Assembly (NCBI GenBank): GCA_018343915.1
Contig: JABRWF010000002.1
Span: 806,001-870,000, forward strand
Length of the DNA stretch: 64,000 bases
Origin: Agroathelia rolfsii
Taxonomy: Eukaryota > Basidiomycota > Agaricomycetes > Amylocorticiales > Amylocorticiaceae
Direction of reading: 5' to 3'
Both the position numbers and the translations under genes were made by a program. This document shows positions 4,083 to 49,628 of this stretch, piece after piece; positions within the stretch are counted from its first letter, which is position 1; each line of letters starts with the position of its first letter. The notes beneath the pieces are model-generated. The model saw only the letters and a list, made by a program, of their open reading frames with translations. It ran no database searches and was not told the DNA's origin.

Positions 4083-5134
4083 TTTGCTAATCCGTTTGGT
4101 TGATTATGTAATGAACCACTGGCACCGCCATCAAAGACCACTTTCATCTCGTTCAAGTTGCCTACTTGCGCTAGCGGCAGTGCTTGAACTTAAATTGTAC
4201 CACCGATGCTAACATAATTATGATGACTGCTGCTCTACTACTCCGTATTTTATTGATACCGGGGATTTGTGACATTTTTGCTTGACGTTAATGCAACAGA
4301 CATACTGGTACTGACTGCTCAATGGGTCGACTAAAATGATCCGTGCCTTCCTGCTTTCCCTCAGACTATTCCCTAGTTTGTGGGGAGAAGAGTTTCATCC
4401 GCTCCTATCGCTCCTGAATTAAATGGAGGTCAATCTATGCTATGTGAGGCCCGAGTATTATATCTATTTTAAATCAAAGTCTGTCGGTGTGCTGGAGCTA
4501 AGCCATTCACTTGCTCCGAGGCTATTCTAATTATATTGGATGAAGGGCCATTTTTGATGCAACCAAACATTACGGCGATTAATCGAATATGAGTTGCACA
4601 GTGCTAGCACAGAGCCACGCGTTGTTTTATCGCCTCGGTCTTCAAAACGAAGGCATGTATGGAAGTTCAGTGTGCGCATTTGAAGTTGTGACTGGATTTA
4701 TATCAATGAACATTGCTACTTGTCATAACTCACTCTGAATGCTCCGTTCTCTACGATTTCAATACTTGCTCACGTCTCGCCAAGACACCACGGAAGAATG
4801 GTATTCGCATCGGTGTAGCATTGCACTGGTATTCATGAATAGGTGCTTCCGATAGTTCGTACACGTAAGCTCATTCTAGTTGATCCGACTCGATACTAGG
4901 ATTAACGGCGAAGGCGTGTGATAATAAATACGAACGGCAGTCCCTCATACCATTCTAATTTACTATCCGGACTGATAACATTTTATTTTTCCTGTGTCCG
5001 ATGCACATCAGCCGCATGCATCACTCCAGTAAGCTTCGTAAACGTACCATTCGTAAGATACGCTTACGAGCTATTCGACTTGGTCCGATAGGAAAGCTTC
5101 CAGCAATATTGATTAGCTTAACAACCGCTCTTAC
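4083..5134. other. Intergenic region upstream of UGT copy 1
   Basis: About 1 kb of AT-rich sequence between the divergently oriented glomulin-like gene and the first UGT. No gene was recognised. The part from about 4980 onward resembles the upstream regions of UGT copies 2 and 3 (shared ttcctgt-tcc and catgcatcactcca-taa blocks), so it is probably a promoter that was copied together with the coding sequence. Confidence 0.45.
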
Positions 5135-5142
5135 TATATAAT
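5135..5142 (+). promoter_or_regulatory. TATA-like box of UGT copy 1
   Basis: The sequence tatataat lies about 80 nt before the start codon. The same ctatataat block precedes UGT copy 2 at the corresponding place and is changed to ctacataat in the decayed copy 3. Conservation between paralogous promoters is the main support. Confidence 0.4.
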
Positions 5143-5214
5143 CACCAGTATCCCCCCTAGAAAATTTTCTCATCAGCCACTAGTAATCCCCAAAGACCTC
5201 CTCTTATACAGGAC

Positions 5215-7219
5215 ATGAGCGCCGTCAATCATAAGAATCTATACGAAAAGCATGTATTGCTAACGGCAGCACCAACATGGAGTTAGTATTCACGAGAAGA
5301 TCACATAATTAGGAGACTGATCCAAAGCGTCTCAATATCAAGGTCATTTCCGTACTGTTTGCGTTCTCGCAGCGAAGTTTGCTGCTGAGAGGCCAATCGT
5401 CGTGACATTACTTGTGCCACACTACCAGGGTACATTTGAAAGGTCGCAGAAAGAAGTAGCCCGTTGCCTCTCCGACGTCCAATCGCCCTCGGGCACCATT
5501 CGGTATGTTAGAGTTCGGCTATATATGCAAACATGGACATGTCCCATTAATAAAGCTCACTGTAGGATCATTGCGATGGGACAGCTTGCGTCGGACATGG
5601 CTGCTTTCTTGGAACCTGATATACCGGCCTTCCAAGATTTCTGGAACAGATGTCTTCACAGCTTACCGATTACATGCTCTGCCACTGGGAAAGAGTATCC
5701 CGGTGTCGTAAAGCCCTCGGTGTTCTTCATAGACAGTATGCAGCACGATCTGCTCACCCATGTCCGGACTATAGATACATATCCGAAAACGACCGTCCTA
5801 ACCTGGATGATGGCATTCGTGGGTACAATGATCACTATAGGATTCCCGAGCAAATATGGTGGCTCTTCCGAGGTCTTGGTACCCGAGTTTACACCGGAGG
5901 AGATGACCAATGGAAGACTTTTCAAATCTGGAGAGATTAGACGCGTCCATGGGCTACCAGACATGTATGATTGGGAGGACTTCCCACAGGACCTTTCTAA
6001 TATTCCGATGCTCAATGATACCAACAATATGAGTTATGCTTTTCATAAAATTGCAAGGCAGGTCATTCTATTATGTCCAAGCACTAAGTATTGAGCTTGC
6101 TTTGGTTTTGATAGAACAATCTGTGAGTCGGACGGAGTAGCTACAGCCAGTGCGGTAGGATATCATGGAGAAGAGCTTTCGGGTGTTATACACCAATGGG
6201 CCACAGAGAACAAGAAATTATCCTTTCATTTGGGCCCAGCACTACCACTGAAACCGGGAACAAGTGAATTTACACAGAGTATACTTGACGCCGAAATGGC
6301 TGCTGCGCCTCCAGGCATTGGTGAAAAAGTGCAAAACTTCTTGGACAGCATGCTCAAGCAACGAGGGGAGAAAAGCGTCATCTATATATGCTTTGGCACA
6401 AATTTCTGGTATGTCTTTGTCATTGTTCTTTCACGACCTCTGAAAAACCGCGCCTTGTCAGGCCTACGAATCCTGATCATCTCTGGTTGCTTCTGGACAC
6501 TCTTTCGAAAAGAGATATCCCCTTCGTAAGCTTCGCCCATCCTGCCCCCTGACTCTTTAAGATGCCGATTATCACTCCAGATTCTGTCGCATTCATCACC
6601 AGTGGCACAAGTCCCAGAGCATATAAAAGAGCGCTTCTCTAGTATTCCCGGAAATCTTCTTATTCCATGGGCACCACAGCAAACCATATTGGCGCACAAG
6701 GTAAGTGGAATACGGAAATTGAGAACGTCGAATGCTAAGAAAATTATGTTCAGGCCATAGGGTGGTTTGTCACGCATGGAGGAGCAGGAGGCACCATGGA
6801 TGCATTGACTCAGGGCGTCCCAATGTACGTCTCTACTCAATTTACATTTACTTCTTTTGTCAAAGACTGATATTCATCAATTTACCATCTACAATAGGAT
6901 TGGATGGCCATTCATGGCAGATCAGCCAGGCAACATCGCCCATCTGGTACATACGATGGATGTCGCTTTTGAATTCATCGAGGTTCGTACAGGTCAGAAT
7001 GGATTGAAGCCTATCTATCAAACGGGCAAGACACCGAGGGGTACTCTTGAGGCTTTTGGCGAGGAGCTCAATGAAGTCTTGGACAACTTAACGTCCGAGG
7101 TCGGACTGAGAAAGAGAGCAAACGCAAAGAAGCAGCAGAAGATACTAGCCGCCTCTTGGGCGCCAGGCGGTCCAACGCGCGTCTCATTCGATTCACTTGT
7201 TCAGAAATTCGGTTTTTGA
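5215..7219 (+). CDS. UDP-glycosyltransferase, tandem copy 1 (intact)
   Basis: Family-1 UGT of the fungal type, predicted to move a sugar from a UDP-sugar to a small hydrophobic acceptor; the acceptor is unknown. Eight exons: 5215-5281, 5343-5502, 5566-6057, 6115-6408, 6462-6525, 6581-6700, 6754-6824 and 6898-7219, giving 529 aa. N-terminal AAPTWSHFRTV holds the likely catalytic His (about residue 24). The donor-sugar site reads WAPQQTILAHKAIGW, then FVTHGGAGGTMDALTQGVPM, then IGWPFMADQPGN, the fungal equivalent of the plant PSPG box ending in D-Q. No transmembrane tail is evident. Exon lengths match copies 2 and 4 almost exactly. Intron 3 (6058-6114) must use a GC donor (AG|GCAGGT), because the nearby GT choices break the frame or leave a 27-nt intron. 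First of four tandem paralogues. The start is set by alignment with copies 2 and 4. Confidence 0.9.
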
Positions 7220-7984
7220 TTCGGATCATCATAGATAAGCAGAAGTTATTTAATTCAAATGATTGCTTGCTATTCAATAATATTCACGATCAGACAATGA
7301 GCATTGCTGGACGTACATATATTCCCTGCACTGTACGTGCATGTAGTACTCTTGCTCATCTTGGCACGAGTCACCCAATGATTCCATAATTCAGTTTTGG
7401 TTGTCTTGCCGAGACTTCAGTGCCGAGAACAGTGATGATAATCAATCGGTGGCATTCTACCGATGCTGATCACTGACGGCCTCTAGCTGTGTGCATACTA
7501 TATGAGCTGATTATATACTTAAATTAACGGCAAAGGTAAATGATGGTGCTAGAATATGGTCACATGTTTCTCTTTATATTTACGGTAGTTTTCCTTATCG
7601 ATCGCTATCTGTTTGACTACGTATAACGATGTGCAAGTAGATAGGCGGAGTTTACTTCTTTGTGTCGACCGCTTCTCGTCGTCGTCGCTCGTCGTATTTT
7701 AAAAGATGGTACATGGGATCAACAGCCCTGGGCTGCATAATTGTCCTCAGGGTATTCTGATTTATTACGTGTATGAATCGATAGGGTGAAATCTTCCTGT
7801 ATCCAATATAACAATCATCAGCCTCATGCCAATGCATCACTCCAATATAATTCGCAATGACTCGACGAGCTTCATAAGCCTTGTCGTAAGCGTACCACTG
7901 GCAAACAATGCTTTAAATATCCGATTTAGCTTGATATAGAAACCTTCTCAGCTAAGCGTTTGTAAGCTGAGAATTCCCTTGTAC

Positions 7985-7992
7985 TATATAAT
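7985..7992 (+). promoter_or_regulatory. TATA-like box of UGT copy 2
   Basis: The sequence tatataat lies about 100 nt before the ATG at 8092, inside a block of upstream sequence shared with copies 1 and 3. Support comes only from position and conservation between the paralogues. Confidence 0.4.
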
Positions 7993-8091
7993 GTTTGACA
8001 TCCTCGTCACTAAAAAAGCTTTCCTATCGATATCGCTCCCCGACACGCAGAATCACCAACCATTTCCGAGATCACCTCTAAGATTTGATAC

Positions 8092-10082
8092 ATGAGTGTT
8101 ATAAGCTCTACGTCTACATACGAAAAGCATGTGCTACTAACGGCGGCACCAACATGGAGTTAGTGGCCACGACGAAAGTACATCGTTGAGAAACTCATGC
8201 AAAGCCCACTGATGATGTTAAGGTCATTTCCGTTCCGTTTGTGTTCTCGCAGCAAAGTTTGCTGCTGAGAGGCCGATCGTCGTGACATTACTTGTGCCAC
8301 ACTACCAAAATACATTTGAAAGGTCGCAGCAAGAAGTAGCCCGTTGCCTCTCTGACGTCCAATCGCCCGCAGGCATCATTCGGTATGCTAGAGTTCGGCT
8401 ATATATACAAGTGTATCCGACTAACCAAACTCATCATAGGATCATTGCTATGGGACAGCTTGAAACTGACATGTCTGCTGTCATGCAGCCCAATGTACAG
8501 GCCTTCCAAGATTTCTGGAACAGGTGTCTTCACAGTTTGCCAATTACATGTTCTGTCACTGGGAAAGAGTTTCCCGGCGTAGCAAAGCCTTCGCTGTTTT
8601 TTATAGACAGTATGCAGTATGATCTGCTCACTCACGTCCGGGCTACGGATACATCTCCGCCAACGACTATCCTAACCTGGATGATGGCGTTTTTAGGTGC
8701 AATGATCACTATGGCATTCCCAAGCAAATATGGTGGCTCTTCGGAAATCATGCTATCTGAGTTTACACCAGAGGAGATTGCTAATGGAAAGCTTATGAAA
8801 CCCTATGGGGAGATTAAACATATTCGTGGGCTTCCAGACATGTACAACTGGGAGGTTTATCCACAGATTTTGAATATCCCTATGCTTAAGGATCAAGATT
8901 ATATCAATTAGGCATTCCATAAGTTTACAAAGTAAGCTGTACAACTCTGCTAAACACCAAGTTGTACATTCCTTAACACCCTGATAGAGCGTTCGTTGAA
9001 TCGGACGGAGTAGCTACGGCTAGTACAGTAGGATACCACGGAGAAGAGCTTTCAAACGTCGTGCACGAATGGGCCACAGAAGCCGAGAAATTATCCTTCC
9101 ATTTAGGCCCAATGCTACCATTGAAACCAGGGACAAGTGAATTCGCACAAAGTACGCTTGACGCTGAAATGGCTGCTGCGCCTCCAGGCATTGGTGACAA
9201 AGTGCGAAACTTCCTGGACGATATGCACAAGCAACGAGGAGAGGATAGCGTCATCTATATATGTTTTGGCACAAGTTTTTGGTTTGTCGTTCTCGTGATC
9301 CTTCTGTGGTTTCTAACAAACCGCGTTCTATTAGGCCTACGAACCCCGGTCATCTTTGGCAGCTGCTGGACACTCTTTCGAAAAGAGACATACCTTTCGT
9401 AAGCCTTCTCGCATCTCATTGATTCCAAGGGTTTTGATTGTTCTAGATCCTATCTCATGCGTCACCAATGGCGCAAGTTCCGGAAAATATAAAGGAGCGT
9501 TTTTCTGATACCCCCGGGAGTCTTCTCATTCCATGGGCACCACAGCAAACTATACTAGCGCACAAGGTAAGCAAGACCTGGGCGGTTGAGAGATCGAGTA
9601 ATGAACATCGTTATCTTTAGGCCATAGGGTGGTTTGTTACGCATGGGGGAGCAGGAGGTACCATGGATGCATTGACTCAGGGTGTCCCAATGTATGCCTC
9701 TATATATCATGCTTCGATTTTTTTAAAAACTGATGTTCCTCGATTTACCATCTGCAATAGGATTGGATGGCCATTCATGGGTGATCAGCCAAGTAATATC
9801 GCATATCTTGTACATATGCTGGATGTTGCTTTTGAATTCATTGAAGTCCGCACCGGCCAGAATGGATTGAAGCCTATCTATCGAACGGACAAGACACCGA
9901 GGGGTACTCTTGAGGCTTTTGTCGAGGAGCTCAATGAAGTCTTGGACAACTTGACGTCCGAGGTCGGACTGAGAAAGAGAGCGAACGCAAAGAAGCAGCA
10001 GAAGATCTTGGCTGCCGCTTGGGCGCCAGACGGTCCAACGCGCGTCTCGTTCGATTCTCTGATTAAGAAGTTTAGTCTTTGA
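8092..10082 (+). pseudogene. UDP-glycosyltransferase, tandem copy 2 (one nonsense codon)
   Basis: Same family and structure as copy 1. Exons 8092-8158, 8223-8382, 8440-8931, 8988-9281, 9335-9398, 9447-9566, 9621-9691 and 9761-10082 have lengths identical to copy 1, and all splice borders are GT/AG. The only lesion seen is TAG at 8909-8911, codon 233, where copies 1 and 3 have TAT (Tyr) in the context N-Y-A-F. Everything downstream, including the WAPQQTILAHK and GGAGGTMDALTQGVP sugar-site motifs and the DQ, is intact. This implies a recent or allelic nonsense change, a base-call error, or rescue by splicing: the TAG is the last three bases of a possible 57-nt in-frame GTTTAT...TTAG segment that would remove 19 codons without shifting frame. 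If translated normally, the product would be a 232-residue N-terminal fragment without the donor-binding domain. Confidence 0.75.
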
Positions 10083-11735
10083 TTTTGTTCATTGTAGATC
10101 AGGAGAAGATGCTATGTGTTGTTTACTAATGAATCGATCCCCACAATATACAGGAGATGCAATTCTTAGACGGTGGTTGCTATTAGCTTACCACTAAAGG
10201 ATAAGACTGAGTACGGGAAGGTGGCACAGCCACTAGTGCAAGGGGTGTCTACCGATTATGCGGCAGCCATAACACTGTCTCAATGCACATAGAATTGAGA
10301 TGTGAATTATTGCACAGTTATTATATCCTTTCACCAGGCACAATGCAAAGCCCAGAGTGCACAGGCACGGGCAAGAAATGGTAATTTAGCCATAGTATGA
10401 AATACCGGGCACACACTCAGCAGCAGCAGAAGCCCAGCGATAAATGCATGGGTAGGAATTGCAGTGTAGCCATGACATGGAATAACATAGGCACAAGCCT
10501 GGGAATAATGAGGGAACGCAAGCATGGTAGTGTTGGCGCAAAAACAGCAGTAGCAGCACCCAGATTTGGGCATAAATAAGAGGCAACACAAATGCCTCAT
10601 CACACATAGTAATTTTCAAGTGTATTCTGGTATCTCAAGCTCAAGGTGCGAGTGCGTTAAGCCAGCGGGGAATACTGGCGGCGACTCCACGTCCCTCTCT
10701 CCAGAACCGCCAGCCCTGACGGGAGGTCAGGCCTGCGCTGCAACGGCAAGAGAAACAGGTATGGAGCATCGAGAAGGTATCTCGACACCCCCCTGACTAA
10801 CTGCCTGCGCTAATGTACCCACTAGGGGGGTGGGTGGGTCGAGCACAACTCACCGCTGACTGTATGCGCTACGTACGCTCTTAGCTGCCAGTGTCAGAGA
10901 ACAAGCCGCAAACTGTGCAGCAGCTAAGCTGTGCGGGCAAACTCCGCAAAGCGAAGTTTGGTGTCTCTGGCCCGTCCTCCCAATGCCGAATCCTCAACCT
11001 CGCAAGCTCGGAGTCGGATTCGGCGAAACCGCATGCCAAAGACACCACTTAATATCCCAGTGTCTTGCCTCCTTCGGCAGAAAGCATTCAAATATTCGAA
11101 TATTCAAACCCCACTGCCTGGCAACTACCATCCAATTCAAACTTAGAGCGGGGCTTGAAGGTGGCATAATCGTCAAGCGCCCGAGTACAAGGCTAACCAT
11201 TGTCTTGTAGCTTGCTGACGGTTGCAACTACAATGAATCCAAGTGAAGTCATAAATTCTCTTGTGAATACCTTCTGAGGAGCACCAACAAGTATACTGGT
11301 GATGAGAGGCTTCGTGAGGGCCGCGGCATTTGAAGTGGAGATCAATTGATATTTCCTTTTCAACCTATATCACCACAAAGATGTAGTAAGATGTAATTAA
11401 TATAGATGTAAACACTCTGCGAATGACATTCACTCCTTCCTGTTTTAGCAGCAAGAGAGTCGATCAAATGCTAGTCGCCGAGACGCCAGGACATTGTAAG
11501 GCCTCGGGTAAGCTACTTTTGATCTTGCTTACACAAGTTTTGCCGGCCCCTAAAAAGATTCGAGGCTGCAAATTTTCATTTATAAAAAGAAAACATAACA
11601 TGATCAGGATTGTAATACTGCCCACACAATAAGCATATGCTCGGACACTCGGATGTAGCCTCTAATCTTTCGGGCAGGGGCCTGACGTGTATACATCAAT
11701 GATGTATGAGTAAAAAAAATTCTTCCTGCGTCCAA
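10083..11735. other. Long spacer between UGT copies 2 and 3
   Basis: No coding gene was recognised. The first few hundred bases are 3' flank. From about 10330 to 11220 the DNA is noticeably richer in G+C than its surroundings and contains a fold-back structure (see separate entry), which suggests a fragment of inserted repetitive DNA. From about 11340 it becomes AT-rich again and leads into the promoter of copy 3. Confidence 0.4.
10959..11048. repeat. Imperfect fold-back (inverted repeat) in GC-rich island
   Basis: Left-arm blocks tggtgtctctgg and gccgaatcc face right-arm blocks ggattcggc and ccaaagacacca around a short centre. The 9-base gccgaatcc/ggattcggc pair is perfect and the outer blocks match with about one mismatch. 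The surrounding GC-rich island differs in composition from the AT-rich flanks. It could be a transposon remnant or a structured RNA-coding piece; no target duplication could be identified. Confidence 0.4.
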
Positions 11736-11943
11736 TACTCGTGGGTATCAAAAATATCTACAGTTCCACACTTTTGTAATTCAGTCACTTCCACACCTTT
11801 TCTCTTCAATTTTTCCTCAAGACTATCTGAATGCCCATGCCCTATAGATAGTCTCATAGGAATTTCTACTTAAAGAAAAACAGTGTGGAAGCGACTGAAT
11901 CATAAGAATGAGGAACTACGGATGCTTTTGATATCCGTGAGTA
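11736..11943. mobile_element. Miniature inverted-repeat element with TA duplication (promoter of UGT copy 3)
   Basis: A 204-bp non-coding element occupies 11738-11941 with TA at 11736-11737 and again at 11942-11943. The ends are ctcgtgggtatcaaaaatat and, read inward from the right, ctcacggatatcaaaagcat. The inverted arms run about 60 bp with roughly three quarters identity, and a second small palindrome (gactatct/agatagtc) sits in the centre. The homologous promoter of UGT copy 2 carries the empty site: ccaaTAtaacaatca at 7803-7817 corresponds to ccaaTA + element + TAtaacaatca here. TA duplication and terminal inverted repeats fit a non-autonomous Tc1/mariner-type element; no transposase is present. 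Confidence 0.88.
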
Positions 11944-12219
11944 TAACAATCAGTGCTAGTCTTGTGTATTACCCTGATATTTGCAATGACTCAGCGGGCA
12001 TTGTAAACCTTGTTCTAACCACACTACTAGCAACACTTTAAAGATATCCGACTTGGCCTGATATAGAAATCTTCTGAGCAGCGTTTATAAGCTGGAAAGA
12101 TTGCCTTTACTACATAATCTTCAACATCCTTGTCTTCAGAGAATTTCCCATTGATATTGCTCCATAATACTACAGAACCACCAACAATCTCCAAAGAGCT
12201 CTTCTTCACAAAGCAAGAC

Positions 12220-14183
12220 ATAAGTGTTACAAATCCTACGACTGTGTACAAGAAGCATGTGCTATTAACGGCAGCACCAACATGGAGTTAGTGGTCACAA
12301 CAAAAGCGTATTGTTAAAAAAACTCATGCAAACCCAACTACCGGCGTCAAGATCATTTTCGCTCTGTCTGTGTTCCGGCAGCAAATTTTGCTGCTGAGAG
12401 GCCAATTGTCGTGACATTGCTTGTGCCACACTACCAAAATACATTTGAAAGGTCGCAGCAAGAAGTAGCCCGTTGCATATCCGACGTCCAATCACCCGCG
12501 GGCATCATTCGGTATGTTAGAGCGTGGCTATATGTGCAAGTATATCCCACTAACCAAGCTCATCATCATGATAGGGTCATTGCTATGGGACAGCTTGAAA
12601 CTGACATTTTTGCTGTCGCACAGCCCAATGTACAGGCCTTCCAAGATTTCTGGAACAAGTGTCTTCACAGTTTACAGATTAAATGTTCTGTCACTGGGAA
12701 AGAGTTTATAGGTGTTGCAAAGCCTTCGCTGTTCTTCATGGACGATACGCAGTATGATCTGCTCACCTGCATCCGGGCTACGGATACATCGCCTCCAACG
12801 ACTGTCCTAACCTGGATGATGGCGTTTTTAGGTGCAATAATTGCTATGGCATTCCCGAGCAAATATGGTGGCTTTTCCGAGATCATGTTACCCGAGTTTA
12901 CATCAGAGGAGATGGCCAATGGAAGGCTCATGAAACCTTGCGGGAAAATTAGACACATTCGAGGGCTCCCGGATATGTATGATTGTGAGGCTGATCCACA
13001 GCTTCTAGATATCCCTATGCTTAAAGATCAAGATCATCTCAATTATGCTTTCCAGAAGTTTATAAAGCTATACAATTCTACTAAACACTAAGTTGAATAT
13101 CTTGATAGAATGTTCATTGAGTCGGACGGAGTAGCTACAGCTAGTGCCATAGGGTACCATGGCAAAGAGCTCTCTAGTGTTGTGCACGGATGGGCTGCAG
13201 AAAATGGAAAATTGACCTATCATTTAGGCCCAATGCTGCCATTGAAACCAGGGACAAGTGAGTTCGCACAAAGTATGCTTGACGCTGAAATGGCTGCTGC
13301 GCCTCCAGGCATTGGTGACAGTGTAAAAAACTTCTTGGACAATATGCTCAAGATACGGGGAGAGGATAGCATTATCTACATATGTTTTGGGACGAGTTTC
13401 TGGTTTGTTCTTCTCTTGATTCTTTTCCCGTTGCTCATGAACCGTATTCCATCGGGCCTACAAATCCCGATCATCTCTGGCTACTGCTGAATACCCTTTC
13501 AAAAAAAGATATACCTTTTGTAAGCTTTCTCGTACTCCATTGGATGCAAAGGTGTTGATTTTTTTAGATCCTGTCGCATGCATCGCCGATGGCACAAGTT
13601 CCGGAAAATATAAAGGAGCGTTTTTCTGATACCCCCGGGAGTCTTCTCATTCCATGGGCACCACAGCAAACTATACTAGCGCACAAGGTAAGCGAGACCT
13701 GGGCGGTTGGGAGACTGAGATTGAGTAATGAAAAATGTTATATTTAGGCCATAGGGTGGTTTGTTATGCATGGAGGAGCAGGAGGTACCATGGATGCATT
13801 GATTCAAGGTGTTCCAATGTATGCATGCTTTTATCTTTCAAATATTGATGTTTCTCAACTATCATCTACAGCCGTTCACGGCAGATCAGCCAGGCAACAT
13901 TGCATATCTTGTACATATGTTGGATGTTGCTTTTGAGTTTATTGAGGTTCGCACCGGCCAGAATGGACTGAACCCCATCTATTGGACGGGAAAGACACCG
14001 AAGGGCACTCTTGAGGCTTTTAGCGAGGAACTGAATGAGGTCTTGGATAATTTGACGTCCGAGGTTGGATTGAGAAAGAGGGTAAATGCAAAGAAGCGGC
14101 AGAAGATCCTAGCTGGAGCCTGGGCACCAGATGGCCCGACGCATACCTCCTTCGATGCTCTCCTTCAGAGATTTAGTCTTTGA
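12220..14183 (+). pseudogene. UDP-glycosyltransferase, tandem copy 3 (multiply inactivated)
   Basis: Recognisable over its whole length as a UGT, closest to copy 2. Comparison of the eight exon equivalents shows five lesions. (1) The start codon is ATA at 12220-12222. (2) The donor of intron 3 after 13066 is gone: gtaa present in copy 2 is deleted, leaving aaagctat. (3) The acceptor before exon 5 is GG instead of AG at 13454-13455. (4) Exon 8 begins at 13872 after loss of 10 nt that encoded the I-G-W of the sugar-binding site, which shifts the frame. (5) The TATA-like box is changed. Reading through the missing donor reaches a TAA at 13089-13091. The threonine of the VTHGG motif is also replaced (VMHGG). 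A small transposon lies about 280 bp upstream. I regard this as a dead gene; a short N-terminal product from an internal ATG cannot be excluded. Confidence 0.92.
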
Positions 14184-15528
14184 TTTACATTGTGCTAGAT
14201 ATAGAGGATAAAGATGTGATCATATAAATGTCAGACCTTCATTCGGACAATATCTTGAGCCTCTTATGTAGCTTCGCTTATGAGAATGCAAGAGTGAAGT
14301 ATAATAACAAAGCATATGAAATCCTCAGGCTCTCCTATCAGCGAGTCCGTATCGCCCCTCATCTCCGAGTCGGTTTGGAATCTATTAGGTCAGAAAAATT
14401 GTAATCAATTTGGTTTATTGATCCAATAAGAAGCCTGACTCGAAACAAATGCTTGTCAGATAACCAAAATTCCAGTGACGGTGGGCTGCAAGTCAGCCCA
14501 GAGTAGTGGAGATAAGTGAATGCTTCCAATGATTGCCAGTGTGGCCAGTCATCGTACACAAAAGCAAAGTAGTTTGGCACCGAGAACCTACTGACAGCAA
14601 GACCCGAGGCTTCCAAGTTTGTTTCAAGTCTGGCTTCATTCTGGATTGAAAGAGCTAGGCGTTAATCGTTCAGCGCTTAGCATTTGCTTATTAATTTCAG
14701 AATTCAATATTCAATGCTCAGTCAGATTGGTACTATTAGTGGCAGAGTACGGCCGTAATGATGGCCCTGCTGCGATCTCCGACTCCCCTGGCAGAGCTTC
14801 ATCATTATTATCATCATGATCATGATCATTGAAACGACTACGATCGTTATTGACAGCACAAACTGAACCTTGTCATTCTTGGCATCATGTATTAGATAAT
14901 GATCTCCACTGCTATCCTTTAGCCTCCTGTAAGCAGAGTTTGATGGTTCGCTGCGTTCAATTGGACTGGAGCTATCCTTTCAAGTTTAATCATAGCCATC
15001 CCTTTGGCAATGTTGAAAGTAAAAGCAATGATAAGCACCACTCTCTCCTTTGTGGTATCCTCGTCTCAAACCCATTGTTAGCAACTTAAAACACACAATA
15101 TAGTATGTATGCATGAAGACCACCCAACCTTTAATCCAACAAAACAGACTAGCAAATGGAAACAATCAAGTAATTTAATTCAATGGTCATCCTAGTCAAT
15201 CAAAAAACTCATTATGCCAAGCACATCAAGTGATCTTATTCTAGATAGTATCAGCGGGTAATGTATGTAATTGGGAGAATGTTCGTTGGTGGCACCTCTA
15301 ACCAAGATCCACCCTACTGATGTCTCCAATCAATGGCATCATCTAGAAACGTGGGGACCAATAAATACATGTCCTCGCAGCACTGGCATCTATGCCACAG
15401 AGACCGGGAATCAAGCTCCCCTTCCCAACCACATTCCCGCTAAGATATCCCAGAATTGGTCCCATTTTATAAACAGCGCTGCAGTGGCTGGTCCTTGCCG
15501 TTCGCTTCATACTAGTAAACTTTGCAGA
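14184..15528. other. Spacer between UGT copy 3 and the DUF6533-type gene
   Basis: AT-rich sequence of about 1.3 kb with no supportable gene. It contains short simple repeats such as alternating atcat/atgatc near 14805-14830 and no clear transposon ends. Confidence 0.35.
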
Positions 15529-17197
15529 ATGTCAGCATATAAACTTCCTGTCTCAGTGGATACCGCTTGTATGCATAATTCGATAACCTGTATTCCACTG
15601 ACAAAGCCTAACCGAATATTCTATCTTCAGTGATTACTGGCAAGTATTCCAGAATAGGAGCGCTTGCACTTCTGGCTTATGATCATTGTGCGTTAATCTA
15701 TTTTAATTGATTTAACTTGAGTAGACTTTGATTGATAAGGCTTATGTGGTTTTATTTCAAGTGTTAACATTCAACACTGAGGTATGAAAGGAGCTAGATG
15801 TTGGTATCTGCAGAAGTCCTTACCTTTAGAATAAATGTAAAGGTATCTCATATATGGGGTAGCGGCTCCAAGATTGTCAATTGCTTGTATTTTATTGTAC
15901 ATATGCCTTTTTTGACTTAAGGGTATTGACTCATAGCTTTGTGTCAATAGAATCGCTGGCTTTCACTTGTCTGGCTTATCATTGACTCCAGCAAGTTTCA
16001 TATCCCTGCTCTTGTTTTTATTCTCATCCAACATTCTTAATAGTTCCAATGACTGGTACCGGCGTTGTTTCATCGCAGGTACACTCTTCATTTGATGTCC
16101 AAATAACATCTAGCACATTGGCTCATTATTCTCAAGATGTAATTTGATCTAGCTTCTAATATAGGCTAAATTAAAATGCCAATTTACTACAGCTGTATAC
16201 TCTATTTAATCCTGGATGATACTATGTATGTCTCTAGATTTGACTCGAAGTTATTCATATCATTTAACAAGCGCTTAGGACACTTCTATCGACTTTGATG
16301 GTGCAATGTAAGCTTTTTGAAATCGAAATATCCTACTGAGTTACACCTATTAGTATACCCATAGGTATCTTACAGATGCGGGTAAATCCATTTGGCTTTC
16401 TTATCAGAAACTCGTTTGACACTGACATAGATATATGCCATATGGAAATGTGACCGCCGTATACTACGCTTCATGGTGGTAGCAACTTTGTTAGAAGTTA
16501 TTGCAATGGCAATTCTCATTATTATCACAATGGTTCGCATATCAGGTATACTACCCACTGGTGCTTCCGTGGATTAGGAAAATAACGTCGCCTAATACCA
16601 TACAGATCTTCCGATCGTTTCTACCCCTACAGGATGCTCTTATTCGGGTTTGATACATACTTCGGCTCTGTTCTGGACACCCGCCCTTGTTGTTGAGCCT
16701 ATGCTTTGTGGCCTTGTACTCATCAAAACACGTCCGCTTCGGAATATATTCTGGTTGATTGAACCTAAGTCCCTCCCGGCAATATTGGGACGCGATAGTC
16801 TACTATATTGTGTGGTGTACGTGACTGCCTTGATCAAATCGATAGTGGATACACCAACGTGCTTTCTGATATTTATTCTCCTTTATACAGGATATTCTCT
16901 GAACTACTTGTGACAACTAATATATGGATACATGCGCCTGAATACATGAATATCGTCAACCCGTAGGTGCCAAACAATAGTTATGCATATATGCACTTGA
17001 TTTGATAAGAAAAATATCGATTCAGGTGGTCTATTGCATTGCCATCCATCTTGGGCTCCAGACTGCTCCTGCATCTCAAAGAACGCGCGCCCGAAGTCAA
17101 GGCCATGACATTAGCTATGAACAGTACTCAGCTCCACTCTGCACTGGTATTTAATGGATCGGAAGGGGTTGGGTCCTACTCAACATACGATGCATGA
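15529..17197 (+). CDS. Multi-pass membrane protein, DUF6533 type (model partial)
   Basis: Hidden in many short exons. The start MSAYKLPVSVDTA (ATG 15529) splices to LITGKYSRIGALALLAYDH, then LLTFNTE, then VSHIWGSGSKIVNCLYFI. This reproduces the N-terminal DUF6533 pattern of basidiomycete seven-helix proteins (Y-D-x-L-T followed by E-V-x-x-I-W). Later exons give VATLLEVIAMAILIIITMVR, then SALFWTPALVVEPMLCGLVL, a GRDSLLYCVV segment, and a final exon WSIALPSILGSRLLLHLKER ending at TGA 17195-17197. These match the typical C-terminal half (a cytosolic loop and R-D-S-x-L-Y helix, then GSRLLL-N/H-L). I could not resolve the exons between about 15960 and 16440, so a defect there cannot be excluded. 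Function unknown; membrane location expected. Its place inside the UGT array may be chance. Confidence 0.6.
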
Positions 17198-18178
17198 GCA
17201 GTAGCCATAGGCTCAGGAATCAAAGTTGTAGTGTGAGATCAAGAAATCACTCATTTCTTAAATATGCTACTAGTAGGCTTGTTACACGTGAGTTGTCTCA
17301 GAATGCATACTGTTAGTATGTATACATGTATGCAACTGCTTTTCAATATACGAAAATCTACACAAGCAAAAAATGAGTCGCAGTCAGCAAACTGTACATA
17401 GAAATAGGGGGAGGGGAATGGCTCACTTTTCTCATGTAAGGGCTGAGGCAGATAGATTACAATGACTTGGACCTCAGTATAAGGGAGGACCTGAGAGTGT
17501 CGTTTATAGGTCCAGGTGGCGGTGGCGCAAAACTGCGTCTGCAGAGACGCAGCCACTGACCCGGGGGCCACAGCGCCTATCCGTGCCTGAGTAGCTAGCA
17601 TTACTCATCACTTTCTCGATTCTCGAAGCTCAAGTTCCCTGCGCACGACATGCACTGGTGTTAGTCTGTAATGATACTGGACAGTACATCTGTATTGGAT
17701 AGCTTGATAAGGCCGACATATATTGATGGCTTGGCAAAGCGAGCAGAATCTTTAGCTGCCAGGCTTTCCATGATACCAGTATGGCTCAACAGGATGCTAT
17801 TGACTCTACCCTGCTACGAAAGCCTTTCCGGCTGCTTGTTAATACTTTGTCTTGCATACTTTCGACATAAGCCGCGTAATTAAGCTATCAAGGCATGCAA
17901 TTTATTGTAGCTCAAAGCAGTCATCACATTGTAATATGGTTGCTAAGTTGAAGTTAAGCGACGGGTATCTATTCAATGCATCAACATCTATGCCGAACGT
18001 ATTACGAGTCTCATCATTGATTCTATTGCTAGTGTGGTGTATTCACGTACTTGACCCACGGTACCTCACCCGAGCCGAGCGAACACGCAAGAGCTGTGTA
18101 TGCCTCAATGACTGATTTGACCAAGATTAGTAACATTTAACAGCTTCTTGATCCGATCGGAAGAAAAGTTTAGAGGCC
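17198..18178. other. Spacer upstream of UGT copy 4
   Basis: No gene was recognised. Two open frames (17251-17601 minus, 17671-17883 plus) have no features that convince me. The last part should carry the promoter of UGT copy 4, but it shows no clear similarity to the promoters of copies 1 to 3. Confidence 0.35.
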
Positions 18179-18283
18179 ATGAAATTATTTAGTCTCCGTT
18201 TTCTGTCGAGTTCTCACCCCAACAGACCATTGTATCTTTCCGAGTATCATTCTCATTCAACACGATTAGCCTCCGAATCGATA

Positions 18284-20277
18284 ATGAGCTCCGCAAACAG
18301 CTCCCTTGTAACAAAGAAGCATATATTACTGACAGCAGCACCTACATGGAGTAAGTGTCTATTTTGCTCATAAAAAATTAATACAGATCTTTTTTAAACA
18401 AACCATAGGTCACTTTCGTAGCGTCTGTTTTATAGCAGCAACATTTGCTGCTGAGAGACCAATCACTGTAACCCTGCTTGTGCCTTACTACCAAAAAACG
18501 TTCCAGCAGGCCCAGCAAGAAGTAGATCGATGCCTCGCAGACGTGAAATCGCCTCCTGGTGTTGTTCGGTAAGAACAAAGTGTAATGGCGCTCCAGTTCT
18601 TAGTTTTATAATTGATCGATGTTCAGGATAATTGCGTTTGGGGAGCATTCAAGCGATCTTCTATCAGGAATCCGGCCGAATATTCCTGCCTTCGAAGAGT
18701 TTTGGAGAAGGACTCTACATAGCTCGGCCATAACCTGCTCTGCCACGGGAAAAGAATACCCGGGTGTTGCAAAGCCGTCATTCGTCTTCGTGGATCCTTT
18801 TCAATACGATATCATGGTTCACATCCGTAGCATCCACTCGCCTGCTCCTATTCCTGTATTCGCATGGGTCACAGGTTTTACTGGAATGATAATCTCATGG
18901 CTATTTCCGAAGAAGTATGGTGGACTTGCGGACTTCATCCTACCCGAGTACACCCAGGAAGAAATTGCAAAAGGGAGATATTTGCCAACTACCGGCGAAG
19001 TCCGACATGTTCGAGGGACTCCAGATATGTATGATTGGGAGACCTATCCGCAGGATATCGGAAATCTTCCCTTTCCTAGCATGCAAGACGGTATCCCCTT
19101 CTTCTTGCATACAGCTACCAAGTACGTCTAGGTAAACGAGGACAACATAAAACCAATTTTTAATCTTGCAATTTCTCATAGAATGATACAAGAAGCTGAT
19201 GGCTTGGCTACCGCCAGCACGGTTGGCTATGATGGTGAACAGCTTTTGTCTGTTGTGGACGAGTGGGTGAACGAGAATGGAAGGACTTCGTTCCATCTTG
19301 GCCCCGTTCTACCTCTCAAACCCGGCACGAGCGAATTTTCTCAGGCTCAACTTGACGCCGAAATAGCTGCCGCTCCTCCAGGCATTGGAGATCGGGTTAT
19401 CAACTTTTTAGATGAGGCATTAAAATCAAATGGGGAACATAGCGTCATTTATATTTGCTTCGGAACAAATTTCTGGTAGGTCACAGTGACTGGTATTGTA
19501 AGGATCTACAATACTGATTTCATTAATCTTTAGGCCAACTAACCCTGACCATCTTTGGACCTTGTTGGAAATAATTTCTGACAGAGGCATACCATTCGTA
19601 AGCCATGTCAACTTTTCTTCTATCAATTTTCAATTGTTACTGAATGGGTTTAGATTCTATCACACGCGTCACCAGTAGCACAAGTGCCAGACCACATCAA
19701 AGAAAAATATTCCAATTCTCCTAACGGTCTACTGGTCTCATGGGCGCCGCAGCAGACTATCTTGGCACATAAGGTAATCTCAATCAAACATTTCAAAGAT
19801 ACAATGATGCGAGATGTTTTTCAGTCAATAGGCTGGTTTGTTACACACGGTGGAGCGGGAGGAACTATGGATGCGCTGACTCAGGGCGTCCCTATGTATG
19901 TCTAAATTCTCTCGCCCTGGTGGAGGGGATACTTAATACTCACCACCTAATACAGGATTGGATGGCCATTTTCTGCCGATCAGCCTAACAATATCGCTCA
20001 TCTTGTTCACACACTCGACGTTGCTTTTGAGTTCATCGAAGTGCGCACTGGTAAATTTGGCTTAAAACCCATCTACCTCACAGGGAAAACGCCAAAAGGA
20101 ACTCTTGATGCTTTCAGAGAAGAGGTTAAAAGCATTTTGGATGAGCTCTCTTTCGAAGCTGGTCGTAGAAAGAGAGCAAACGCACAGAAGCAGCAGAAGA
20201 TATTGGCTCAAGCTTGGGCACCGGGTGGAGCAACCTATGCTTCATTCCAGAGACTCGTCCAGAAGTTCGATCTTTAA
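18284..20277 (+). CDS. UDP-glycosyltransferase, tandem copy 4 (intact, diverged)
   Basis: Family-1 UGT of 530 aa. Exons 18284-18350, 18409-18568, 18627-19121, 19182-19475, 19534-19597, 19654-19773, 19825-19895 and 19956-20277 match copy 1 in length except exon 3, which is one codon longer. All introns are GT/AG. The catalytic-His region reads AAPTWSHFRSV; the sugar-donor site reads WAPQQTILAHKSIGW, FVTHGGAGGTMDALTQGVPM and IGWPFSADQPNN. It is the most diverged member of the array, for example KPSFVFVDPFQYDIMVHIRS where the others have FFIDSMQ. An upstream in-frame ATG at 18179 would add 35 residues (MKLFSLRFLSSSHPNRPLYL...) that look like a basic leader; I prefer 18284 because it aligns with the starts of copies 1 and 2. 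Acceptor substrate unknown. Confidence 0.9.
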
Positions 20278-31851: not shown

Positions 31852-32171
31852 AACAATTGTTTCTAGTATGTCAATGGCCTTGTGATATTACAATACAGTA
31901 TGCCGTTTATACACCTAATATTTGGGGGCTGAAGTGAGACCAACTGTCGTGAGGACGGCGGCTAAATGTACATGATTATCCGTGCTGGTTAGTGACATTT
32001 TGCTGCCGAGAGATTTGCGATTGGAACTCCGCCACTGTGCTTAAGAGCGTCCGCCGTGATGGTAATTGCGTTTCTTATCCTTCTGCATTCGCCCTCACCA
32101 GCACTCCCTGTTGTCTTAGGCAACCCCCACACTCGCTTTACCAAACCCTTCCGCTCGCTACCTTCACAACC

Positions 32172-33009
32172 ATGTTTGCCGCTGCATTTGTTACTCTTGC
32201 TCTTTCTGCTTCGGCTCTTGCCAATGTTTATGTGTGTATATTGGCCTGTTACCATTTATCTATAATGAACTCAATAGTCAACCTTTGTACCCTTACTGGA
32301 TTTTCTAGATTACCAATCCGGTTGCCTCTACTATTTGGACTGCTGGTCAGACAGTCAACGTCACCTGGCAGGACGACGGCCAGTCGCCCAGCCTTGCCTC
32401 GTTCGGCCCTGCCACAATTTCTGTCTACGTCGGCAATGCACAACAACAGACCTCCGTTCATACCATCGCTACCAACACCGATGTCTCCAAGACTAACGCC
32501 GTCTCTTTTGTCCCCGACCCAAGCATGGGCCCCGTTTCGAACGACTAGTAAGCTTCTTCTGCATGCATGGATTATTAGTTGAGTCTAACACCTTAGACCA
32601 GTTTCATCCGTATCGAGTCTGTCGGCCTCAAATCCGGCCAATACAATGCCATGGCTTTCTCTGCGAAGTTTGGGTTAGCATACCAACCTTGTGCAACATT
32701 TTCTCTTGATCACTAATGCGATTTTCTATTTTTAGCATGACGGGTATGACCGGCACCTTCAACTCCGCCGAGCTTGCTCAGATCGCTGGCCAAAGCACTG
32801 CTCCTCTTGCCAGCCAAAGCACTACTGTGTCTCTACCTACTAACAGCGCAACTGGGGCCGCGACTAATGGCGCTTCCAAGAGCGCGGCAAGCTTGGCTGC
32901 CTCCGCCACCTCCACCTCGACGAGTGGCGCTCGTGGCACCGCTGCCGTCTCTGGCCTCGCCGCCATCGCTGGTGTGGCTGTCGCTATGGTCGGCTCTGGC
33001 CTTTTATAA
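32172..33009 (+). CDS. KRE9/KNH-like GPI-anchored Ser/Thr-rich cell-wall protein 1
   Basis: Four exons (32172-32231, 32309-32547, 32602-32673, 32736-33009) give 214 aa. The signal peptide MFAAAFVTLALSASALA is followed by a single domain: ITNPVASTIWTAGQTVNVTW, then SLASFGPATISVYVG, then YFIRIESVGLKSGQYNAMAF. This is the KRE9/KNH1 N-terminal fold found in many small secreted basidiomycete proteins linked to cell-wall beta-1,6-glucan assembly. A Ser/Thr/Ala-rich stalk (about residues 130-185) should be heavily O-glycosylated, and the C-terminus VSGLAAIAGVAVAMVGSGLL is a GPI-attachment tail with the likely anchor site in SGARG. A paralogue lies at 46554-47603 on the other strand. Confidence 0.85.
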
Positions 33010-35121
33010 GAGCCGATCTGTCACTCTTGATTTACCCTTGTCGCGCCTCACTCATACTCGTCGCTCTTTATACTCTGGCCTCCTTGCTTTAAACCCGGGC
33101 ACCTCTTATTCCTCCTTATTAGCTCTCTCGTCTCTTTTAGCAACCCTCTCCTCTTTCGGATTATTCGCTCTGGACCAGACCTAGTCTCTATTCTACGCAT
33201 CTTTTGGATATATTACTCATTTTAACTTGATATGTATCTACACTTCACGTTATGATGATGATGACACCATTTTTCTTCCATCTTATATTCACCCGTGCGC
33301 CATGGACTGATGCGGATAAGACTGTACCTTACATTCTTTTTTTTTTTTTAACAGACGAATTGAATAATTTCCTAGAGGGGACCTTCGTAGGCTTGTGAAA
33401 ATTTCCCCCGCATTGCTACCTCTGCGGTTTTTGTGCAATTTACTTGGAGGAAGTCGGGTGCGACGCGTATTTGCCGCGCTGACGTTCTTCCGTGTTGATT
33501 GATTTGAGGTTCAATTGCGTTGCTTGAATTAAAAGTGTAGGATGCACCTTGACCACAATTTCTCTATTTAGATTGTCAAACATCTTGACAACTGATGATT
33601 CATTGATTCATCATAGGGGAGGGGAAGGGGATAAAAACTCTTGACTGTTACAAGTGGCAAATCACGACTACCGATACAAAGCCGCCCACCAATTTTGTTA
33701 CTGCCCTGATGCTGCCCTTTTTTTTCATATTGTATCACTGACATCTTTTGATTATCATCGAAGATTGCTGTGAGATTGAAACTCGAAGACGGATGTCAGT
33801 GCATAGTAGGGTAGACGCAGCCTAGATATGGCTGATTGCCAACAGTCTTGATATATGATCCTGCGTGTAGAACCTTCTCAATTTTCGGTCTATTGCGTCT
33901 TGTCCTTTATCCAACTTCAATCTACGAAATTTGATGAACAATTAAATCAACACGTAATCACAAAACTACGCTTTCATGCAGAGAAGTCGTTGATAGAAGT
34001 CAAGAAATAGAGAATGCTATGTACTGGATAATCAGATACTGCAGCAGCTAACTCCGCACGGTCAACAAAGCGTCTATACCTGTGGTATGTTCGACTCTCG
34101 TAAAAGCGCGCAGATGCAGTTACTTTTGTATATCGCCGGCACCCCTCTTTGGGATCATCTATTCAAGCGGTATGCACAGCCTACCAGAAATGGATGTAGT
34201 TGACGTCCAGCGTGGGTTCGGGTTTATCAGTTAGGAAAAAAAAAAACAAGGAAGAAGAACGAATGGTACATGAGGCTTACCATCCAAATTTAAAGAGAAG
34301 TCGATTCAGCCAATATTGCTTATCTGTGAAAAATAACATATTCATACATCCAATACCAACATTAAGACCCTTGTTCTGATAATCGAGGAAATATATGAAT
34401 TATTTGCCACGTTCGTTCGTATACCGCAATTAATCGATGTGAACCTTTAAAGCTTTCATATGTCAGTGTGGACAAAATAATAATGCCTTTTCTGTACCGC
34501 TCAAAGGCCACGGAGGATGCGAGCATGAACACGGACACGCGAACTCGAAAAAGCCAAGACCGCCACTGGAGGCTATGTTGATCCTCATGTAAGGGTTAGA
34601 GGCTCCGTTTAATAGTTGACGTGTTGGTACCCCGGCCGGGACTTTAGAAGTGAGCTGGGAAGTATATGTGTCTGTCTGATAACTGGATAGGTGTACAGCA
34701 GATACCAATATTTTATGTAGGCGAGTGATGAGTGCTAATGAACTTCAAGCTTGACGTTCGAGTTCTTACCTTTTTCATGATATTCAGCCATTCACGGCAC
34801 GTTATCCGGTGCCTTGCCTTGTTGGCAGACCAATCGGTGACCTGGATCATTTCTGCGTTATCGGACCGTCGCTATTCGAGCTCGAGTGATCTCATGACTC
34901 GAAAAACTCAATGCGGGGTAACGGAACAAGGACGTCAGAGCCCTCGTTTATTTTCTGCCCCGCACCTTACCTTTTTCTCACTGCCCGGCCTCTCGCTTCA
35001 TACCCCCGTTCGCGTACCTATAATAAGGTCCCAGGCGCGCCCAACTTATATCCCACGATCCACTGGTTCGTGATCCCCAGACCATCGACACTCTCTGCCA
35101 GTGCCAGTGGTAGTGCCAACC
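33010..35121. other. Intergenic region with homopolymer tract
   Basis: About 2.1 kb without a supportable gene. It includes a T-tract at about 33340-33350, the GPI-protein 3' flank, and the promoter of the MFS gene. A minus-strand frame at 34463-34708 is cysteine- and proline-rich but has no recognisable pattern and no splice partners that I could find. Confidence 0.4.
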
Positions 35122-37916: not shown

Positions 37917-38814
37917 CTAGGAAGTTACTGAATGTCACTAAGAAGCGGTAAGGGATAGAGGGGAAGTAGAAGGCTTCAATAATGAAAGGCATTCGCGATG
38001 TAATTTACGAGATAAAGTTCATGTATCAATATATTCGTACGACATCCTAACCAGGTTTTTTCCATTCACATGTTGATAGTACAGTCGATAGTCGTGCGTC
38101 TGCTGCTGGAAATATGTTCCACTACCACGGGTCTTTGCTCGCTCAACGCTCAACTAGCACCCGCCCTTAGAAGCCATAGAGCTATGTGAGTGATAAAATT
38201 ACATGGAAATTAGAAGTGCGGGAACGTTGGAATTGTGAGTAGAATTTAGTCTGCGACAGTAAAGTGGATCATCCAGGCCGCCCGAGATTATCGATCATGC
38301 ATCATGAAAAGTGTTCAAAGCGTCATCAAGAGTACTCTTCGACGAAGAGTGCTCAAGTTTCGACGACTCAGCAGTGGCGTCAACTTTGAAATTCTAAAGC
38401 TCAAGCTTTTTCTTTATGATAACAGTTTACTTTAATAGTAAGTATCATGCTTTTCACTTCGAACTTAGACAGCAGGTGTACTAGTACAAGCAAATACTGG
38501 TGACCGGCAACCGGCCCCCGTTCTTTGTGCAGGTCTTACCTGGTTTCATCACGTTTTTGGATTTGTAATAGTTCGCACATGAAAGCGCGTATGAATATAA
38601 TATCAGGAATCATAACTGGTATGTACATCACTAGCAATACATGTCATACCACAGAAAAAAACAGAGGAATAAAAGCATAGATCCGAATTTGTATCTGTCA
38701 AAAATACAAATACTCGTATCAACAGCGATTTACCTGTTCACTGTAATAAAAACACCCCCAAGTTCGCAAGGTGAGAAGCATGACCAGCCTTCATGGCTTG
38801 ATTCAGTTCGCTGC
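37917..38814. other. Intergenic region between convergent genes
   Basis: No gene was recognised. It contains a near-perfect short palindrome at about 38331-38354 (gagtactcttcg/cgaagagtgctc, 11 of 12 pairs with almost no loop), which is probably a fold-back or chance rather than a bacterial-type terminator. Confidence 0.35.
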
Positions 38815-40311: not shown

Positions 40312-41075
40312 GAGTGCTTACCATCTTCATCATAACGTTTCGGACCAAGAAAGGATGATATCCAGAAATCGCCGATTCGATCAATCAGGGTTGGCATGCT
40401 GGCAGACGTAGATTCCTTGATGTATTCGGAGTCATCGACAAGTATATATCCCTTTACGTTTTTGCGCTTCTTGGTCTGGTCAGACTTTTTGGTATTCATG
40501 TTGCCAAAATGCGCATTCCATTTTTCGGACCGAAATAATGCCCAGAACGAAAATAGAATGAGCATCAGACACGTCCAGGAGACTCCAACGGCAAGGTACA
40601 ATGCAACGTCGAATATTATAAATGCATTCTCGAAAGCATTAGGGGCCAAGCTATTTTCCGAAAAGTATGTCGGATCTTTTGTAATTTGTGAATGCGAGCG
40701 ATAAAAAGAACTTACAAATAGCATACCTGTGTATGGACCATATTTTAAAAGGACTAAATTGGACGATCCCAGAGCGAGCATAGTGAAGACTTCAAAGATG
40801 GCCCAAGCCCCATGAATTTGGCGCTTAAATGTAACAAGATCGCTAAAAACCCGTCGGAATGAGATTTTATAAAAATTTAAAGTCGGAACCTACATGAAAA
40901 TCCAGAAGAATACTACGACGGTATAGACAGCGGTGGAAATGCCAGTATAGAGCCGTCCATGTGGGTCCTCTTCAATGAAGACGAATATAGTGGAAATAAT
41001 CCAAGGCACCCAAAGCAATGCTAGGACATAGTGGAGAAGGAGCCGTACGTGGAATACAAAGTATTTCCCTGGCAT
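40212..41075 (-). CDS. Four-TM membrane protein, unnamed (possible fragment)
   Basis: ATG at 41073-41075 opens MPGKYFVFHVRLLLHYVLAL, with four hydrophobic helices: VLALLWVPWIISTIFVFI, ISTAVYTVVVFFWIFI, IFEVFTMLALGSSNLVLL and FDVALYLAVGVSWTCLMLIL. A basic cytosolic segment (KSDQTKKRKNVKG) follows, and the tail ends near SFLGPKRYDED. One intron near 40850-40890 joins WIFI to DLVTFKRQIHGAW. The four-helix layout resembles fungal MARVEL-type proteins, but I cannot assign the family firmly. Upstream, at 41463-41530 on the same strand, another reading frame encodes FWRFNFSLGYSTPFFAPEAG and looks like an exon, but I could not connect it. The 3' end overlaps the start of the decayed gene next door, so the two may originally have been one gene. 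Confidence 0.45.
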
Positions 41076-41248
41076 AGCAAGCGATGATTGGTAGAAAGGT
41101 GTGTGAAGAAGCCATCATAGCTGAAGACACGTCTTCAAATACACTGTAACTCGTTGAATGAGCGTGGTATGGTTGAGGCGTTGAGACATCAAGTTGAGCA
41201 GCTGGGCCGTTGGCGCCTCGAGAATGGTCGAATAGAGCCCGGCACGTG

Positions 41249-41367
41249 TGAAGTGGTTGGAATACTGGAAGCGCCATTAAATTGGGCGGCCGAAGAGTTA
41301 GTGCCTCAAATATGTATAGATAGTCATGAAATGGTCGGAGACTGGAAGCGCCGTCAAATCAGGCGGC
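41249..41367. repeat. Imperfect direct repeat with shared agcgcc core
   Basis: Copy 1 at 41249-41290 and copy 2 at 41327-41367 share the pattern tgaa-tggt-gga--ctggaagcgcc--taaat--ggcggc, with 78 bp between their starts. Shorter relatives containing aagcgcc occur near 41506 and 41597. The repeats lie in non-coding sequence upstream of the four-TM gene. Confidence 0.5.
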
Positions 41368-49538: not shown

Positions 49539-49628
49539 TTTTATTTACGTCTTTTTTGCTTCTTCCGATGATGAAAGGCTGTATAGATACCGAATTTTTG
49601 ATTGCGCCCTGAGTACAATAAATTGTGA

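What the first reader, a model, noticed from the sequence alone, without database searches (positions are those of the whole stretch)
5215..20277. Tandem UGT array caught at different stages of birth and death
Four UGT copies share eight exons of almost identical length, yet range from intact (copies 1 and 4) through one nonsense codon (copy 2) to five separate lesions (copy 3). Copies 1-3 also share upstream sequence, so promoter and gene were copied together; copy 4 is the oldest branch. Such arrays are usually tied to changing chemical exposure (detoxification or glycosylation of metabolites), which is inference.
Basis: partly seen in the sequence, partly recalled or inferred. Interest (0 to 1): 0.75.

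Follow-up and report, generated by a model that had tools for sequence, protein, structure and literature searches.

The report
Decaying tandem glycosyltransferase array in fungus
Four neighbouring copies of a fungal sugar-attaching enzyme gene, two open and two broken, have a matching set on another contig of the same assembly, so one can read how copies were swapped, fused and lost separately in each set; the process is a familiar kind of gene-family turnover.

Summary
Window 5215-20277 carries four GT1 (UDPGT, PF00201) genes of eight exons. Copies 1 and 4 are open (copy 1 needs a GC-AG intron 3). Copy 2 has one in-frame TAG. Copy 3 has four inactivating lesions by my count and no stop or net indel inside exons 1-7. 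The host looks like an Agaricomycete.

New: contig C8 of the same assembly carries the region again, inverted and collinear, at 82-91% identity (two long probes, did not show it). C8 holds partners of copy 1 (U8c) and copy 4 (U8a), and one open gene (U8b) that is copy-2-like at its 5' side and copy-3-like at its 3' end. So the array looks older than the C2/C8 split, and each contig was remodelled separately: gene conversion and a probable unequal crossover on C8, inactivation of copies 2 and 3 on C2. Terminal omega of both broken copies is 0.18-0.34, so they probably died recently. Whether copy 4 belongs to the same duplication series as copies 1-3 is unresolved. This is ordinary birth-and-death evolution, unusually well resolved. 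Substrate and exposure claims remain inference.

The parts
5215..7219 (+). UGT copy 1 (c1), open; exons 5215-5281, 5343-5502, 5566-6057, 6115-6408, 6462-6525, 6581-6700, 6754-6824, 6898-7219; intron 3 is GC-AG
   Evidence: (PF00201 E 6e-18); partner U8c on C8
8092..10082 (+). UGT copy 2 (c2), one in-frame TAG at 8909-8911 in exon 3, otherwise open with seven GT-AG introns
12220..14183 (+). UGT copy 3 (c3), pseudogene: start codon lost, intron 3 donor deleted (about 13065), intron 4 acceptor AG to GG (13454-13455), 13-nt deletion at 13871/13872 across acceptor 7 and exon 8
18284..20277 (+). UGT copy 4 (c4), open, all seven introns GT-AG; partner U8a on C8
   Evidence: (PF00201 E 3.8e-19)
11979..12205 (+). 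upstream segment of copy 3 shared with copy 2 (offsets -241 to -15 from the start position; 73% identity)
9474..9572 (+). 99-bp stretch of copy 2 identical to copy 3 (exon 6 and first bases of intron 6): putative conversion tract
   Evidence: the segment tree over 9428-9600 does not group c2 with c3
9834..10013 (+). exon 8 stretch of copy 2 that is 92-94% identical to copy 1: possible conversion tract, weaker evidence
   Evidence: (c1+c2 88% over 9834-10000); the c1/c2 run (p about 0.05) lies elsewhere, at 10031-10046
7551..7739 (.). repeat in the copy 1 - copy 2 spacer, absent at the matching place on C8
10133..11093 (.). dispersed repeat sequence in the copy 2 - copy 3 spacer, matching many places in the genome

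Best explanation
A birth-and-death array of GT1 UDP-glycosyltransferase genes in an Agaricomycete whose assembly holds two diverged copies of this region (C2, the window, and C8). The lineages c1, c2, c3 and c4 existed before C2 and C8 diverged. Afterwards each contig was remodelled on its own. On C8, U8b and U8c exchanged sequence by conversion in exons 2-3, and an unequal crossover in exon 8 fused the c2 and c3 lineages into one open gene, U8b. On C2, copies 2 and 3 may have exchanged a short tract, and both lost their function recently. The intact products (c1, c4, U8a, U8b, U8c) are inferred to move a sugar from a UDP-sugar to a small hydroxylated molecule. Shown: anatomy, lesions, two-contig collinearity, conflicting segment trees, codon-model omega. 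Inferred: crossover and conversion as mechanisms, recency of death, enzyme activity, substrate class.
Against: Of seven DNA searches of the own genome with stretches of the window, two long ones (44100-64000; 32000-47000) showed no collinear C8 match, and only 1167 of 4001 bases matched. Duplication on C2 after the split explains the flanks as well; only dS and segment trees speak against it, and both are disturbed by conversion. The body outside tracts gives c2+U8b only 78; the whole gene gives c2+c3 99; the putative c2/c3 tract region (9428-9600) gives c2+U8b 65; the segment 9137-9280 gives c2+c3 75 and U8b+c1 38. The permutation test ignores rate differences between exons and introns. The codon model used a fixed topology without recombination. 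No RNA or protein evidence.
Confidence: 0.78

Rival explanations
1. Copies 2 and 3 come from a tandem duplication on C2 only, after C2 and C8 diverged, and U8b is the unduplicated state.
For: c2 would then keep the old 5' flank and c3 the old 3' flank, which is what U8b shares with each. Whole-gene tree groups c2+c3 at 99, protein tree 98/96.
Against: dS c2/c3 0.50 and c3/U8b 0.53 exceed c2/U8b 0.36; the body outside tracts groups c2+U8b, though only at 78; c2's 3' flank carries no copy of the 3' flank that c3 and U8b share, but that spacer also holds a repeat.
Confidence: 0.15
2. The lesions in copies 2 and 3 are sequencing or assembly errors, and all four genes work.
For: No reads could be examined. 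Exons 1-7 of copy 3 and all but one codon of copy 2 are open, and both branches show constraint.
Against: Copy 3 has four lesions of different types, including a 13-nt deletion; 10 of 10 full-length loci modelled outside the window show no stop or frameshift in the modelled exons, though the models of U4a and U5a are doubtful around exons 6-7.
Confidence: 0.05
3. On the nature of the second set: the two contigs are the two nuclear haplotypes of a dikaryon, so c2 and U8b are alleles in descent, rather than homeologues of a hybrid or an old genome doubling. This can hold together with the best explanation.
For: Three short probes each find one partner besides themselves; loci also pair on C6/C7 and C4/C5 and, by matching scores, on C1/C2.
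Against: Pair dS of 0.24-0.46 is high for alleles (judged from general knowledge); C3 loci were single in 3 of 3 tests.
Confidence: 0.45

Closest known systems
Tandem UGT arrays of plants and animals (GT1; birth-and-death with conversion and pseudogenes; recalled, from no call)
   Same: Head-to-tail GT1 genes with shared exon structure, pseudogenes among intact copies, exchange of sequence among neighbours.
   Different: Here in a fungus, with a second collinear copy of the array in the same assembly; the closest database proteins found are 47-48% identical to copy 4.
EriJ of Hericium erinaceus (UDP-xylosyltransferase of erinacine biosynthesis)
   Same: Basidiomycete UDP-glycosyltransferase among the hits (28% identity over 96%) with the His and donor box. 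Reported to xylosylate and glucosylate cyathane diterpenes (PMC10830979, passages seen).
   Different: Distant; it belongs to a diterpene gene cluster, whereas no such cluster was recognised near this array in a partial scan.
Exidia glandulosa UDP-glycosyltransferases (P0002, P0003, P0006)
   Same: Closest named homologues, 44-47% identity to copy 4.
   Different: No function named in the listing; each is listed with a contig of 465180 bases, but their arrangement was not examined.

Membership tests
GT1 UDP-glycosyltransferase (Pfam UDPGT PF00201) | Pfam UDPGT match over the curated cut-off | tested here: met
   two proteins given: copy 4 E 3.8e-19, 69.3 bits; copy 1 E 6e-18, 65.4 bits; cut-off 19.5
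GT1 UDP-glycosyltransferase (Pfam UDPGT PF00201) | N-terminal His and C-terminal donor-binding box (WAPQ...HGG...GVPM...DQ) | tested here: met
   His (copy 4 residue 24) in 27 of 27 rows; box recognisable in all four copies, shortened in copy 3 by its deletion. That this His is the catalytic base, and the box the donor site, is recalled from plant UGTs.
GT1 UDP-glycosyltransferase (Pfam UDPGT PF00201) | Fold of known UGTs (GT-B) | tested here: met
GT1 UDP-glycosyltransferase (Pfam UDPGT PF00201) | Transfers sugar from a UDP-sugar to an acceptor | not testable with these tools
   no assay
Birth-and-death tandem array | Copies monophyletic relative to the rest of the family | tested here: inconclusive
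   copies 1-3 with U8b and U8c 100/100; adding copy 4 neither supported nor rejected (AU p 0.25)
Birth-and-death tandem array | Open and inactivated copies side by side | tested here: met
Biosynthetic gene cluster | Co-located core biosynthetic enzymes | tested here: inconclusive
   20 of the 58 open frames of 130 aa or more scanned; 12 of 20 had no family; the rest include a DAO oxidoreductase beside copy 4, GNAT, ORC, UPF3, SYF2 and weak matches

The most novel reading that the evidence does not exclude
The two contigs are the two nuclear genomes of one dikaryon or hybrid cell, and the array decays in a complementary way: one genome reduces the c2/c3 pair by inactivation, the other by fusion into one working gene, so the partner's intact copy permits the loss. 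Relaxed selection between nuclei of one cell would then drive family turnover.
Probability: 0.2. Interest if true: 0.6.

Novelty: new member of a known kind. Interest (0 to 1): 0.38.

Why it matters
Having the same array twice in one assembly gives an internal control: one can separate what is old (copy number), what is exchange inside each contig, and what is recent loss. The genes are distant from every protein found (48% or less), so their substrates are open.

Tried and rejected
Whole-gene codon tree as dating tool: set aside after segment trees disagreed. Copy 4 as root of the array: undecided (of the five trees none is rejected by AU, p 0.10-0.73, but the c4 + C6/C7-b grouping is excluded by the bp-RELL and c-ELW columns). 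A second U8b/U8c conversion tract in exon 4 (9137-9280) looked likely from identity but its segment tree does not group U8b with U8c, so it is not claimed.

UGT loci outside the window: 14 modelled, 10 full-length and 4 fragments (U8d, U4b, U5b, U3b). Six of the ten full-length models (U7a, U7b, U6a, U6b, U4a, U5a) do not begin at ATG; exons 6-7 of U4a and exon 6 of U5a are doubtful, and U7a's first exon is split in the model. The PF00201 hit at C3:306946 was fetched but not modelled.

Rescue of copy 3 by other splice sites was judged by eye's alignment only: an in-frame weak donor lies near intron 3; I saw none for intron 4 and exon 8. Duplication by the 7551-7739 repeat: the repeat is absent at the matching C8 place, so it is probably younger than the duplications. 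Species: the MCM4 search (120 of 2667 hits listed) gave names that I recognise as Agaricomycetes, up to 77% identity over about 70% of the query, no close relative.

Long DNA probes dropped candidates (38 of 129 scored; 2 of 4); stretches 32000-47000 and 44100-64000 showed no collinear partner until short probes were used. Papers: searches listed 6, 1 and 3 papers, seen as listings only; none was on UGT arrays with conversion in Agaricomycetes, and the library is partial. Passages of PMC9187340 on Schizophyllum commune diversity were seen but gave no figure used here; two searches were listings.

Full report
What is there. The window is G000:C2:806001-870000 of a 37.67-Mb, 8-contig assembly. 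An MCM4 query from the window finds Agaricomycetes (class recalled from the names) at up to 77% identity, with no close relative among the 120 hits listed. Four GT1 genes lie head to tail at 5215-7219, 8092-10082, 12220-14183 and 18284-20277. Exon lengths are identical for copies 1 and 2 and for exons 1-7 of copy 3; copy 4 has one extra codon in exon 3. Copies 1 and 4 match Pfam UDPGT over the cut-off.

Lesions. Copy 2 has one TAG (8909-8911). Copy 3 has four lesions: ATA at the start position, loss of the intron 3 donor, GG at the intron 4 acceptor, and a 13-nt deletion across the intron 7 acceptor and exon 8 that breaks the frame. Exons 1-7 of copy 3 contain no stop and no net length change. 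Copy 1 has a GC donor in intron 3; U8c and the fragment U3b have the same, and U8a (intron 1) and U8c (intron 7) have further GC donors, so GC-AG introns seem normal in this family.

A second array. A search of the own genome with copy 4 gave 88 pieces. Models gave 10 full-length loci and 4 fragments outside the window. On C8, U8c, U8b, the fragment U8d and U8a follow each other; U8c, U8b and U8a lie in the order of c1, c2/c3 and c4. DNA of the window matches C8, inverted and in order, at 82-91% in five of seven genome searches and in a comparison with fetched loci. The two long probes showed no collinear match; one search found related genes at 68% and only 35-bp matches. Short probes inside those stretches did match C8, over only 1167 of 4001 bases. 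Between the matches of window 17164 and 17688, C8 has about 29 kb instead of 0.5 kb (positions); I did not read most of its inside. Other UGT loci pair on C6/C7 and C4/C5. For MCM, 4 of 5 distinct genes look paired by their matching scores (C1/C2, C6/C7, C2/C8 twice) and one on C3 is single; for the Rpb2 domain, one pair C1/C2 and one single on C3; a C3 flank probe found only itself. So the held assembly is partly doubled. Whether this is a dikaryon, a hybrid or an old doubling is not decided.

Ages. Pair dS (Nei-Gojobori): c4/U8a 0.271, U7a/U6a 0.244, U7b/U6b 0.275, U4a/U5a 0.321, c2/U8b 0.355, c1/U8c 0.464. Within the array: c2/c3 0.503, c1/c2 0.550, c1/c3 0.711; copies 1-3 against copy 4 are saturated. 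The copies therefore look older than the contig split. In the protein tree c1, c2, c3, U8b and U8c form one clade (100/100) and c4+U8a another (100/100); their links to each other and to the C6/C7 genes are weak (66/44, 84/50). AU tests reject none of four constrained arrangements (p 0.10-0.73).

Exchange among copies. Along the gene U8b/U8c are 93-100% identical over copy-2 coordinates 8255-8782, with a 184-bp identical run that spans intron 2, and 69-82% in much of the rest. c2/c3 have a 99-bp identical run at 9474-9572. Permuting 672 variable sites gives p <= 2e-4 for these two of ten pairs; c1/c2 has p 0.05 and the other seven are above 0.06. Segment trees: c1+U8c 100 and c2+U8b 96 in the 5' flank; c1+U8c 100 and c2+U8b 78 in the body outside tracts; U8b+U8c 100 and c2+c3 96 in 8255-8730; U8b+c1 38 and c2+c3 75 in 9137-9280; c1+U8c 100 and c2+U8b 65 in 9428-9600; c1+c2 88 and U8b+U8c 63 in 9834-10000; c1+U8c 89 and U8b+c3 99 in the last 128 columns; c1+U8c 100 and c2+c3 99 for the whole gene. 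The U8b/U8c tract in exons 2-3 is therefore firm; the c2/c3 and c1/c2 tracts are less so, and the exon 4 tract is not claimed.

Fusion on C8. U8b's 5' flank matches c2 at 169 of 202 informative sites; over the last coding bases and the 3' flank c3-like sites prevail (27 of 39 at 10083-10200, 59 of 91 beyond), and blocks align in order to window 14181-14555, 14622-14802 and 16964-17203. The simplest reading is an unequal crossover in exon 8 that removed the interval between c2 and c3 on C8. Duplication on C2 after the split explains the flanks too, but not dS c2/c3 above c2/U8b.

Selection. A codon model (own implementation, five genes, fixed topology) gives one omega of 0.25. Terminal omega is 0.19 (531 codons) or 0.34 (219 codons, tracts masked) for copy 2, and 0.27 or 0.18 for copy 3. 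No foreground differs from background (p 0.19 or more) and all reject 1 (copy 2 masked p 0.015; copy 3 p < 1e-8). Under neutrality over its whole branch copy 3 should hold about 10 nonsense codons; it has none, so it was free of constraint for at most about 30% of that branch. Conversion from a working copy could also have removed stops. Both broken copies were probably useful until recently.

Verdict. Ordinary in kind.

Noticed in passing
C3:885301-886486 (locus L040): Degenerate fragment of a copy-1-type gene with its upstream flank (matches window 4711-5441 and 5911-6416 at 76%), with an internal deletion and the GC donor of intron 3: a dispersed copy.
   Followed up: partly
window 7551-7739 and 10133-11093: Dispersed repeats sit in both spacers between copies 1, 2 and 3; pieces of the two occur side by side elsewhere (C8:1929399-1930020, C4:3812690-3813386), so they may be parts of one element. 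One match (C7:559575) lies 285 bp after U7b.
   Followed up: partly
C8:2664364-2693471: About 29 kb on C8 where C2 has 0.5 kb (between window 17164 and 17688); contents not read apart from the ends.
   Followed up: no
G000 contigs C1, C2, C3, C4/C5, C6/C7, C8: Assembly is doubled at many tested places, with C2 pairing partly with C8 and partly with C1, and C3 single in three tests: hints at a translocation and an incomplete second set.
   Followed up: partly
window 50216-52174: A gene family (long matches at 66-68% DNA identity) with several members at C2:888-902 kb and C8:2592-2602 kb; the stretch overlaps an open frame with a weak DAO match.
   Followed up: no
window 11735-11944: Inverted repeat with 75-nt arms (76% complementary) in the spacer upstream of copy 3.
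   Followed up: no
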